NCBI RefSeq assembly: GCF_024498195.1
Contig: NZ_CP101824.1
Span: forward strand, 2,294,001 to 2,358,000
Reading direction: 5' to 3'
Source: Halovivax cerinus
GTDB lineage: Archaea; Halobacteriota; Halobacteria; Halobacteriales; Natrialbaceae
Length of the DNA: 64,000 nucleotides
This document shows positions 35,248 through 37,888 of the stretch, one piece after another (position 1 is the first letter of the stretch; every line of letters starts with the position of its first letter). A model generated the notes under the pieces. It made no database searches, had not been told where the DNA came from, and saw only the letters and a list, made by a program, of their open reading frames with translations. The position numbers were made by a program, and so were the translations under genes.

Positions 35248-35265
35248 GCTAAAATATATTTTAGC
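35248..35265. promoter_or_regulatory. Perfect 18-bp palindrome in the psmB promoter
   Basis: The sequence gctaaaatatattttagc is its own reverse complement. Its A/T-rich centre reads as a TATA box, about 44 bases before the psmB start and 109 bases before the divergent mutase start. Such a site can be a two-way TATA box or an operator for a dimeric repressor. Confidence 0.7.
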
Positions 35266-35299
35266 TAACACATAATGGGCGCGGGGCCGTCCTGCAGGT

Positions 35300-36007
35300 A
35301 TGATCGAGCAATCGGGTGAGAGTCCCGCAGGGACAGCGCACGAATCGGCTGACGAGTTCTCCACGGGGACGACGATCGTCGCCCTCGCCGGCGACGACGG
35401 GGTCGTTCTCGGTGCGGACGCTCGTGTGAGTCTGGGCGGGCGCTTCGTGACCAATCGGTCGGCGCGGAAGGTCGAACCGATCGGAGAGCGGGCCGCCGTC
35501 GCCTTTTCCGGCGGTGTCAGCGACGCGCAGTCGGTGGTTGGGCAGTTGCGGACGGAACGCCGCCTCTACGAACTCGATCACGGGCGGCCGATGCCGACGG
35601 ACGCGCTCGCGACGGTGGCGGGGCGACTGATCCGCGACGGACAGTTCCGTTCGATCGGCCTGTTGCTCGGCGGGGTCGACGAGTCGGCCGTCTACTGGAT
35701 CGACGGCGGTGGCGGCGTCATGCGTGACACGTACGCGGCCAGCGGCAGCGGGATGCAACTGGCCTACGGCGCCCTCGAAGGCGCGTACGAACCGGATCGG
35801 CCGGTCGCCGACCTGCGACCGCTCGCCGCCGACGCCCTCGCGGCCGCCGCCGAGCGGGACGTCGCCAGCGGCGACGGGATGACGATCACGACGATCACCG
35901 ACGAGGGCCTCTCCGAGCGACGGACGAACACTCTCGGCCGGGAGGCACTCGCCGGAGCGGAGGGCGAGAGACCGACTCCCAAAACCGCGGACGAGGAGGT
36001 GGCCTGA
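35300..36007 (+). CDS. psmB: Proteasome beta subunit
   Basis: A 235-residue 20S beta subunit. The processing site is STG-TTIVALAG, giving nucleophile Thr24 after removal of a 23-residue propeptide; Asp40 (GADARVS) and Lys57 (ARKVEPI) correspond to the catalytic Asp17 and Lys33 of the family, and SGSGMQLAYGALEG is conserved. So the subunit should be active. The sequence is diverged from the usual haloarchaeal TTTVG start (here TTIVA). The next gene encodes an alpha subunit, starting one base after this stop. Confidence 0.93.
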   Translation: MIEQSGESPAGTAHESADEFSTGTTIVALAGDDGVVLGADARVSLGGRFVTNRSARKVEPIGERAAVAFSGGVSDAQSVVGQLRTERRLYELDHGRPMPTDALATVAGRLIRDGQFRSIGLLLGGVDESAVYWIDGGGGVMRDTYAASGSGMQLAYGALEGAYEPDRPVADLRPLAADALAAAAERDVASGDGMTITTITDEGLSERRTNTLGREALAGAEGERPTPKTADEEVA

Positions 36008-36008
36008 G

Positions 36009-36779
36009 ATGGATACCTCTCGCAGACAGGCCTACGACCGCGGTCAGACGATCTTCTCGCCGGATGGTCGTCTGTACCAGGTGGAGTACGCCCGTGAAGC
36101 GGTCGAACGTGGATCACCCGCCGTCGGCGTTCGCACGGCCGACGGCGTCGTCCTCGCTGCCAGAAAGCGACGCGCCTCGCCGTTGCTCGAACCGGACTCG
36201 GTGGCGAAACTCCACCGGATCGACGATCACATCGCGATCGCCTCGGCGGGTCACGCCGCCGACGCGCGCCAACTCGTCGATCGTGCCCGGGTCGCCGCCC
36301 AGCGTCACCGCCTCCAGTACGGGGAGCCGGCGCCCGTCGAGTCGGTGACGACGTCCCTCGCGGATCACATCCAGGAGTCCACCCAGACTGGCGGGACACG
36401 CCCCTACGGTACGGCGCTCCTGATCGCGGGCATCGACCCGAACGGTGCTGGGATTTCGTCCGGACAGTCTGCCGACGGCTCGTTCGGGCAGCTCTTCGAA
36501 CTCGACCCGAGCGGAACGCCGTACGGCTGGCGTGCCGTCGGGATCGGCGAGGGCTCGTCGACGATCAGAGAGACGTTCGAGTCCTCGCTCGACCCGGCGA
36601 CAGCGGACATCGAAACCACGGTCGCGGACGCCGTGACCACGGCGATCGATGGACTCGCTGCGGACGACGACGAACCCGACCCGGACGCTTACGAGTGCCT
36701 GACGATCGAACCGGGACCGACGGTGACGACCCGATCGACGGACGAAATTGCGACGGTTCTCGAAGAGACGGTGTCGTAG
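36009..36779 (+). CDS. psmA: Proteasome alpha subunit
   Basis: A 256-residue 20S alpha subunit. The N-terminal gate helix region DRGQTIFSPDGRLYQVEYAREAVERGSPAVGVRT is the family signature, and HIAIASAGHAADARQLVDRAR and GGTRPYGTALLIAGID are also conserved. A stretch around residues 141-155 (GAGISSGQSADGS) is longer than in canonical alpha subunits, and the C-terminus is shortened and acidic. It is translated right after psmB, so the two subunits likely form one dedicated 20S particle. Four-to-six base overlaps are absent; the spacing is one base. Confidence 0.92.
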   Translation: MDTSRRQAYDRGQTIFSPDGRLYQVEYAREAVERGSPAVGVRTADGVVLAARKRRASPLLEPDSVAKLHRIDDHIAIASAGHAADARQLVDRARVAAQRHRLQYGEPAPVESVTTSLADHIQESTQTGGTRPYGTALLIAGIDPNGAGISSGQSADGSFGQLFELDPSGTPYGWRAVGIGEGSSTIRETFESSLDPATADIETTVADAVTTAIDGLAADDDEPDPDAYECLTIEPGPTVTTRSTDEIATVLEETVS

Positions 36780-36841: not shown

Positions 36842-37888
36842 TTACGCGACGTCGGCTTCCGCTGCCACGTCCGACCCGGCCCTCGTCGTACCGCACTCGC
36901 TCTGTTCGGTGTCTGCCGCCTCCGCACGGATCCGGCGAGAGGCGACGACGGTACACTCGCCGTCTACGTAGCACTCGACGGTCTCGTCGTCCAGCGTGAC
37001 TGCGACGCGGACGGCCATCGGGTCGTGCGACAGCGGCGTCTCGGTCCACTCGCGCCCGACGTTCCAGATCGGGCGCTGGTCGATCGACTCGTCGTGGTCG
37101 TGGTAGAACGATACGAGTTCGGGGTGATCGAGCAGCGTCAGCGCGACTGGACAGCGGAGCCCGTATCCACACGCCTCACAGGTGAACGACGCCTGGACCG
37201 GGTCCGGGACGGACTCGCGGGCCAGCTCGTCGCCGGGGTCGGGGCGAACCACGACGAGACGCGACTCGACGGGGCCACCACACTCGGGACAGACGCCGTC
37301 GCCGAGGTGGGAGATACGGTGTCGGTGGTGGCGATCGAACGCGGCGGGGAGGTCGTCGTCGTGGGCTTCGAGACCGGCCGGCGGGAAGTCCATCCGGAGG
37401 ATAGACCGCTCACACGCCCCGCACGTTATGGCCACCTCGTTGTCGTCGGCGGCGGCGCCGAGCTCCTGGGCCCCACAGAACGGGCACGGATCGCCGATGG
37501 CGACCGACTGGCGGTCGACCTGGTGCGTGTACGTGCCGGATTCGATGGCGCGGGCGGCGCGCCTGCCGGTCGCGGTCAGCGCGTACCCCTCCTCCGTCTT
37601 CGAGAGGTACGGGCCGACCAGTTCGTCGATGTGGTAGGCGAAGCCGGCCGTCGTGTCGACGTCCGCGGCCTCGAAGAGCGTCGAGAACGAGACGCGACCC
37701 GCTTCGGCTGTGTCTTCGGACCGATCGCGCATCGCCCGGAGAATCCCAGTCCGGACGTCGTTTCCAAGCGCCTGGAACGCCGCACTCGGCTCGGTGACGT
37801 GGACGGATTCGCCGACCGTGTCGGGCGTTGCTGGCAACGCTTCGTCACCACCTGCTCCCGCGTCGGCCTCGGAGTCCACGTCTGTCAT
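36842..37888 (-). CDS. Winged-helix regulator with two zinc ribbons
   Basis: A 348-residue protein. A winged-helix domain of the ArsR-like type spans about residues 35-115 (FQALGNDVRTGILRAM, then FAYHIDELVGPYLSKTEEGYALTATGRRAARAI). Two zinc ribbons follow: CPFC/CGAC (about 134-160) and CPECG/CEACGYG (about 200-238). The C-terminal 100 residues are acidic. It resembles the haloarchaeal DUF7351-type regulators; targets are unknown. It converges on psmA. Confidence 0.8.
   Translation of the reverse strand: MTDVDSEADAGAGGDEALPATPDTVGESVHVTEPSAAFQALGNDVRTGILRAMRDRSEDTAEAGRVSFSTLFEAADVDTTAGFAYHIDELVGPYLSKTEEGYALTATGRRAARAIESGTYTHQVDRQSVAIGDPCPFCGAQELGAAADDNEVAITCGACERSILRMDFPPAGLEAHDDDLPAAFDRHHRHRISHLGDGVCPECGGPVESRLVVVRPDPGDELARESVPDPVQASFTCEACGYGLRCPVALTLLDHPELVSFYHDHDESIDQRPIWNVGREWTETPLSHDPMAVRVAVTLDDETVECYVDGECTVVASRRIRAEAADTEQSECGTTRAGSDVAAEADVA

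What the first reader, a model, noticed from the sequence alone, without database searches (positions are those of the whole stretch)
35248..36779. Separate psmB-psmA operon with diverged subunits
Model haloarchaea keep proteasome alpha and beta genes apart. Here a beta with intact active site and an alpha with an extra loop near residues 141-155 are translated as a pair. They look like a paralogous 20S particle, perhaps for special conditions.
Basis: partly seen in the sequence, partly recalled or inferred. Interest (0 to 1): 0.6.

Follow-up and report, generated by a model that had tools for sequence, protein, structure and literature searches.

The report
Second archaeal proteasome with private switch
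This salt-loving archaeon carries, besides its normal proteasome, a complete second set of proteasome core genes with its own conserved DNA control site and its own probable regulator gene, a package found across many haloarchaeal families, suggesting that these cells can switch on a differently tuned protein shredder.

Summary
In detail: psmB2 (35300-36007) and psmA2 (36009-36779) are intact, 1 nt apart, and additional to canonical alpha1 and beta1 elsewhere in the genome. They are not a lone oddity. The pair belongs to a module that recurs in at least seven haloarchaeal families: a 16-bp palindrome CTAAAATATATTTTAG, then psmB2 and psmA2, then a convergent winged-helix/zinc-ribbon gene (DUF7347+DUF7351; 36842-37888). 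The palindrome precedes 52/52 beta-alpha operons (44 exact) and none of about 195 other psm genes at <=3 mismatches. It is unique in this genome. In the regions fetched order-wide all 35 exact sites sit on psmB2. beta2, the regulator and nearly all alpha2 form well-supported clades apart from canonical copies, evolve about 4-5 times faster, and track each other after the canonical subunits are controlled for. The active site is intact; a classical S1-pocket position is changed to Phe in 45/52. The orphan alpha2 of Haloferax falls in the same clade. Best reading: an alternative, separately regulated 20S particle. Assembly, activity, regulator binding and inducing condition are inferred, not shown.

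The parts
35249..35264 (.). 16-bp perfect palindrome CTAAAATATATTTTAG, proposed binding site of the module's regulator
   Evidence: Upstream of 52/52 beta-alpha operons at <=3 mismatches (44 exact), 0 of about 195 other psm genes; the only site in the 3.9 Mb genome; 35/35 exact sites in the order-wide regions fetched are on psmB2
35265..35277 (+). Conserved core-promoter stretch (BRE-like CTAACA followed by an AT-rich TATA-like element)
   Evidence: Positions +16 to +28 conserved in 67 aligned promoters; haloarchaeal TATA = TTWT and BRE = CGAAA per PMC4983044
35300..36007 (+). psmB2, 20S beta subunit paralog; 23-aa propeptide, mature Thr1 at 35369
   Evidence: PF00227 E=5.2e-40; below the TIGR03634 equivalog cut-off, 169.5 vs 224 bits; catalytic residues intact and F in place of L/M at S1 residue 45-equivalent
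35993..36001 (+). Shine-Dalgarno-like GAGGAGGTG inside the end of psmB2, for psmA2
   Evidence: Motif present in 40/49 relatives vs 10% of random 22-mers
36009..36779 (+). psmA2, 20S alpha subunit paralog with N-terminal gate motif YDRG..FSPDGRLYQVEYA
   Evidence: PF00227 + PF10584; below the TIGR03633 cut-off, 246.8 vs 287.35 bits; clade placement
36435..36485 (+). alpha2 residues 143-159: extra, variable, poorly ordered loop between strands 135-142 and 160-165
   Evidence: AlphaFold2 model; alignment of relatives
36842..37888 (-). Candidate dedicated regulator: winged helix (DUF7347) + DUF7351 with two four-Cys zinc ribbons, 348 aa
   Evidence: Pfam; adjacent in 16/16 named loci and 49/52 further loci; neighbours form one clade 100/99 apart from the 7 other DUF7351 proteins of this genome; eight Cys invariant; N-terminal part resembles wHTH proteins, C-terminal part without close solved fold

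Best explanation
The locus is a self-contained, ancient haloarchaeal module for an alternative 20S proteasome. psmB2 and psmA2 are co-transcribed and translationally coupled and make a catalytically active beta2 and a gated alpha2, which assemble preferentially with each other into a particle with an altered S1 pocket. The convergent DUF7347/DUF7351 winged-helix zinc-ribbon protein binds the palindrome CTAAAATATATTTTAG directly upstream of the BRE/TATA and sets when the operon is expressed. The site sits where archaeal activators usually bind (centre about -44 from the ATG), so activation is slightly favoured over repression (about 60:40). Shown: genes, site, linkage, clades, co-variation, intact catalytic residues. 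Inferred: co-transcription, assembly, activity, binding, direction of regulation, signal.
For: Four psm genes in the genome. beta2 clade of 52 rows 99/96, with canonical beta1 outside it. alpha2 clade 100/96 including Haloferacaceae alpha2. Palindrome on all beta-alpha operons and on no other psm gene, one site per genome, and 81/392 genomes order-wide against about 10 with the backward control pattern. Regulator gene adjacent in 16/16 and 49/52 loci, also where no other window gene is syntenic; one clade. Partial distance correlations given alpha1 and beta1: alpha2-beta2 0.71, alpha2-regulator 0.82, beta2-regulator 0.61, none of 2000 permutations as high; cross pairs alpha1-beta2 0.29 and beta1-alpha2 -0.19. 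Catalytic residues intact in all 51 complete beta2; Phe at S1 residue 45-equivalent in 45/52 beta2 and 0/122 other beta. Strict spacing of palindrome to ATG, 34-39 nt in most, fits leaderless transcription, common in haloarchaea (PMC4983044).
Against: No expression, binding or purification data. In most Haloferacaceae sampled the alpha2 ortholog exists without beta2, and Haloferax volcanii alpha2 assembles with the only beta there (PMC6267482), so alpha2 is not strictly bound to beta2. One congener, G001, has an out-of-frame internal deletion joining beta2 to alpha2, so the module is dispensable. The regulator gene was not seen within 5 kb in 3 of 52 loci and is shorter in family f12. Whether regulator orthologs occur in genomes without the module was not tested.
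Confidence: 0.65

Rival explanations
1. The products are not a separate particle: alpha2 and beta2 are incorporated into mixed 20S particles with alpha1 and beta1, tuning gate and specificity in the way of immunoproteasome subunits.
For: Haloferax volcanii forms alpha1-beta, alpha2-beta and alpha1-alpha2-beta particles (PMC6267482); Haloferacaceae keep alpha2 without beta2; all subunits share one fold.
Against: alpha2 and beta2 co-vary with each other and hardly with the canonical partners; the genes are coupled 1:1 in an operon in nearly all genomes that have them.
Confidence: 0.22
2. The palindrome is only an unusual core promoter (symmetric TATA element), and the neighbouring winged-helix gene is unrelated but stably linked.
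For: The site is AT-rich and contains ATATAT; the neighbour is convergent and has no such site of its own.
Against: A separate BRE/TATA-like stretch is conserved just downstream of it at the distance expected for the ATG; no other gene in the genome has the site; the neighbour stays linked where all other synteny is lost.
Confidence: 0.15
3. A fast-evolving duplicate on its way to loss, without a function of its own.
For: 4-5 times faster evolution; patchy presence (37 of 125 family genomes with the site); deletion in G001.
Against: All catalytic residues kept in 51/51 complete copies; promoter site exact in 44/52 across families.
Confidence: 0.07

Closest known systems
Haloferax volcanii alpha2 (PsmC/PsmA2), the alternative alpha subunit
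   Same: Falls in the same alpha2 clade through Haloferacaceae relatives (100/96); its published peptide GTSLFSPDGR, residues 12-21 (PMC2910475), is identical to that stretch of the Haloferacaceae alpha2 in L424 and L425.
   Different: There alpha2 is a lone gene and works with the only beta; here it is paired with its own beta2, control site and regulator gene. H. volcanii alpha2 and PAN-B proteins rise in stationary phase (PMC2910475) and psmA2 transcripts rise under perchlorate (PMC12175516).
Canonical haloarchaeal 20S core (alpha1, beta1)
   Same: Same fold, catalytic residues and gate motif.
   Different: Separate genes without the palindrome; slower evolution; different S1 residue; no long loop in alpha.
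Haloarchaeal alpha-beta operons (Natrinema, Halorhabdus, Natronomonas, Halosimplex)
   Same: Also adjacent second psm genes.
   Different: Opposite gene order, another lineage in the trees, no palindrome upstream.
Vertebrate immunoproteasome (analogy only)
   Same: Inducible alternative catalytic subunits with altered S1 pocket would be the same principle.
   Different: No relation as a system; here alpha is exchanged too and the candidate regulator is an archaeal winged-helix protein.

Membership tests
Archaeal 20S proteasome beta subunit | Ntn-hydrolase catalytic set T1, D17, K33, S129, D166, S169 and Gly-Thr processing site | tested here: met
   51/51 complete copies
Archaeal 20S proteasome beta subunit | NCBIfam TIGR03634 equivalog cut-off (224 bits) | tested here: not met
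   169.5 bits: a diverged paralog, not the equivalog
Archaeal 20S proteasome alpha subunit | N-terminal alpha signature PF10584 and PF00227 | tested here: met
Archaeal 20S proteasome alpha subunit | NCBIfam TIGR03633 equivalog cut-off (287.35 bits); subfamily NF003075 (219 bits) | tested here: inconclusive
   246.8 bits (below) and 266 bits (above)
20S proteasome particle | Four stacked heptameric rings with peptidase activity | not testable with these tools
   Needs purification
Orthologs of Haloferax alpha2 | Common clade that excludes alpha1 | tested here: met
   100/96; identity of the Haloferax peptide from PMC2910475
Site-specific archaeal transcription factor (DUF7347/DUF7351 gene) | Winged-helix DNA-binding domain | tested here: met
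   Model m679014058571: about 75 N-terminal residues resemble MntR, Sso10a and MarR-type domains at probability 0.99-1.00, though no match reaches E<=0.001; DUF7347. Fold-level support only
Site-specific archaeal transcription factor (DUF7347/DUF7351 gene) | Binds the palindrome | not testable with these tools
   Only co-occurrence was shown

The most novel reading that the evidence does not exclude
Haloarchaea ancestrally possessed a second, inducible proteasome system with a private operator and regulator; the well-studied Haloferax alpha2 is the orphaned remnant of it, left after beta2 and the regulator were lost in most Haloferacaceae.
Probability: 0.55. Interest if true: 0.75.

Novelty: new variant of a known kind. 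Interest (0 to 1): 0.62.

Why it matters
Extra proteasome subunits in haloarchaea are known, but why they exist and how they are controlled is open. This gives a concrete handle: one 16-bp site per genome, one candidate regulator from an uncharacterised protein family (no paper in the library names DUF7351), and a co-evolving alpha-beta pair with a changed specificity pocket. It also offers an origin for the Haloferax alpha2 subunit.

Tried and rejected
SLGG[RQ]FVTN as a beta2 signature: rejected, beta1 has the same insertion. The alpha-beta operons as the same system: rejected by gene order, trees and lack of the palindrome. The quick beta tree joined divergent PF00227 singles to the module through long branches; these were left out of the careful tree. 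The '2 changes' printed for the palindrome group came from a truncated row name; the collapsed tree shows one clade. Eight palindrome sites without psm genes, all with one mismatch, are at the level of the backward control. A Haloferax volcanii sequence could not be fetched by name; a published peptide was used instead. A PDB sequence search gave no haloarchaeal 20S structure that could be recognised.

Full report
Observation. The two ORFs are at the stated place: psmB2 35300-36007 and psmA2 36009-36779 on the + strand, with Pfam PF00227 in both and PF10584 in the alpha. The window lies in a single 3.90 Mb contig; a named near relative is Halovivax asiaticus. The genome holds four PF00227 genes: alpha1 near 2721470, beta1 near 2968788, and this pair.

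Spread and phylogeny. All five genomes of the genus hold the pair, in G001 broken. 125 family genomes were searched, and at least 32 hold a clearly related alpha2. Psm genes from the family, the order and the phylum were fetched and sorted by arrangement: 54 beta-alpha, 27 alpha-beta, the rest single (some genomes counted more than once). In the trees the beta-alpha alphas and betas lie apart from the canonical subunits of the same genomes. In the careful trees the 52 module betas form one clade (99/96). The module alphas form a clade (100/96) that also takes in all sampled Haloferacaceae alpha2 proteins. The family code f5 was identified as Haloferacaceae by inference from plasmid matches to Halopenitus persicus and Haloprofundus. 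The published Haloferax volcanii alpha2 peptide GTSLFSPDGR, residues 12-21 (PMC2910475), is identical to the same stretch of L424 and L425.

The control site. A perfect 16-bp palindrome, CTAAAATATATTTTAG, lies at 35249-35264. It is found upstream of 52/52 beta-alpha operons at three mismatches or fewer (44 exact), and at that level upstream of none of about 195 other psm genes; shuffled upstream sequences gave no match at three or fewer. Some of the 52 are the same genome fetched twice. In the own genome it occurs only here. In the family 37 of 125 genomes have it, one site each; in the order 81 of 392, against about 10 for the backward control pattern. Sixty regions were fetched. All 35 with an exact site have psmB2; of 22 with one mismatch 14 have psmB2 and 8 have no psm gene. 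The aligned promoters show the palindrome followed at once by CTAACA and an AT-rich element, and an ATG mostly 34-39 nt after the palindrome. With the haloarchaeal consensus and the high share of leaderless transcripts in Haloferax (72%; PMC4983044), the second element is the likely BRE/TATA and the palindrome an upstream regulator site.

The regulator. The convergent gene 36842-37888 encodes DUF7347 + DUF7351. It is next to the operon in 16/16 named loci, including Haladaptatus, QS_1_68_20 and Halopiger goleimassiliensis where no other window gene is syntenic, and within 5 kb in 49/52 further loci. These neighbours form one clade (100/99) that excludes the seven other DUF7351 proteins of the own genome. 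Eight cysteines in two CxxC...CxxC pairs are invariant. The model has a winged-helix N-terminal part; the C-terminal part has no close solved relative. No paper in the library names DUF7351.

Co-evolution and active site. In 12 genomes with all five proteins the mean distances are alpha1 0.15, beta1 0.12, alpha2 0.58, beta2 0.62, regulator 0.79. With alpha1 and beta1 held constant, alpha2-beta2, alpha2-regulator and beta2-regulator correlate at 0.71, 0.82 and 0.61. This is a small set of genomes. All catalytic residues of beta2 are kept. The residue that corresponds to Met45 of eukaryotic beta5 (numbering from established knowledge of the family) is Phe in 45/52 module betas and in none of 122 others, which predicts a changed S1 preference. 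The alpha2 loop at about 143-159 is poorly ordered in the model. In Haloferax alpha1 this hairpin carries a phosphosite, Thr147 (PMC2910475); whether the alpha2 loop is modified is unknown.

Variants. In four Haloferacaceae genomes the site, psmB2 and the regulator gene stand without an adjacent alpha; in three of them the alpha2 gene lies 14-16 kb away. Other Haloferacaceae have alpha2 but no beta2. The simplest history is an ancestral module from which alpha2 was separated and beta2 plus regulator later lost; this is inference. In G001 a deletion joins beta2 to alpha2 out of frame while the palindrome and regulator gene remain; an assembly error is not excluded.

Mechanism. Best reading: the DUF7351 protein responds to an unknown signal, binds the palindrome, and controls a coupled pair that makes an alternative 20S particle. 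Both PAN-like ATPases of the genome could serve it. Activation is slightly favoured because the site lies upstream of the BRE. None of the biochemical steps has been tested.

Noticed in passing
L050, L051, L048, L108 and others: A second, unrelated type of psm operon, alpha before beta, in Natrinema, Halorhabdus, Natronomonas and Halosimplex, with closely spaced genes and no palindrome.
   Followed up: partly
L197, L199-L204, L224: Very divergent single PF00227 proteins in several haloarchaea, many beginning MGT and lacking the usual lysine; possibly a third, inactive or differently acting proteasome-like family.
   Followed up: partly
L374 (G001): Internal deletion fuses psmB2 to psmA2 out of frame while the palindrome and the regulator gene remain.
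   Followed up: yes
L347, L349, L351, L352: In family f12 the neighbouring regulator matches over only about 125 residues, as if shorter or strongly diverged.
   Followed up: no
L420, L421, L422: alpha2 lies 14-16 kb from psmB2 in three Haloferacaceae genomes, which suggests an ancestral adjacency broken by rearrangement or insertion.
   Followed up: partly
L252, L253: Two PAN-like ATPase genes in the own genome, both slightly below the TIGR01242 cut-off.
   Followed up: no
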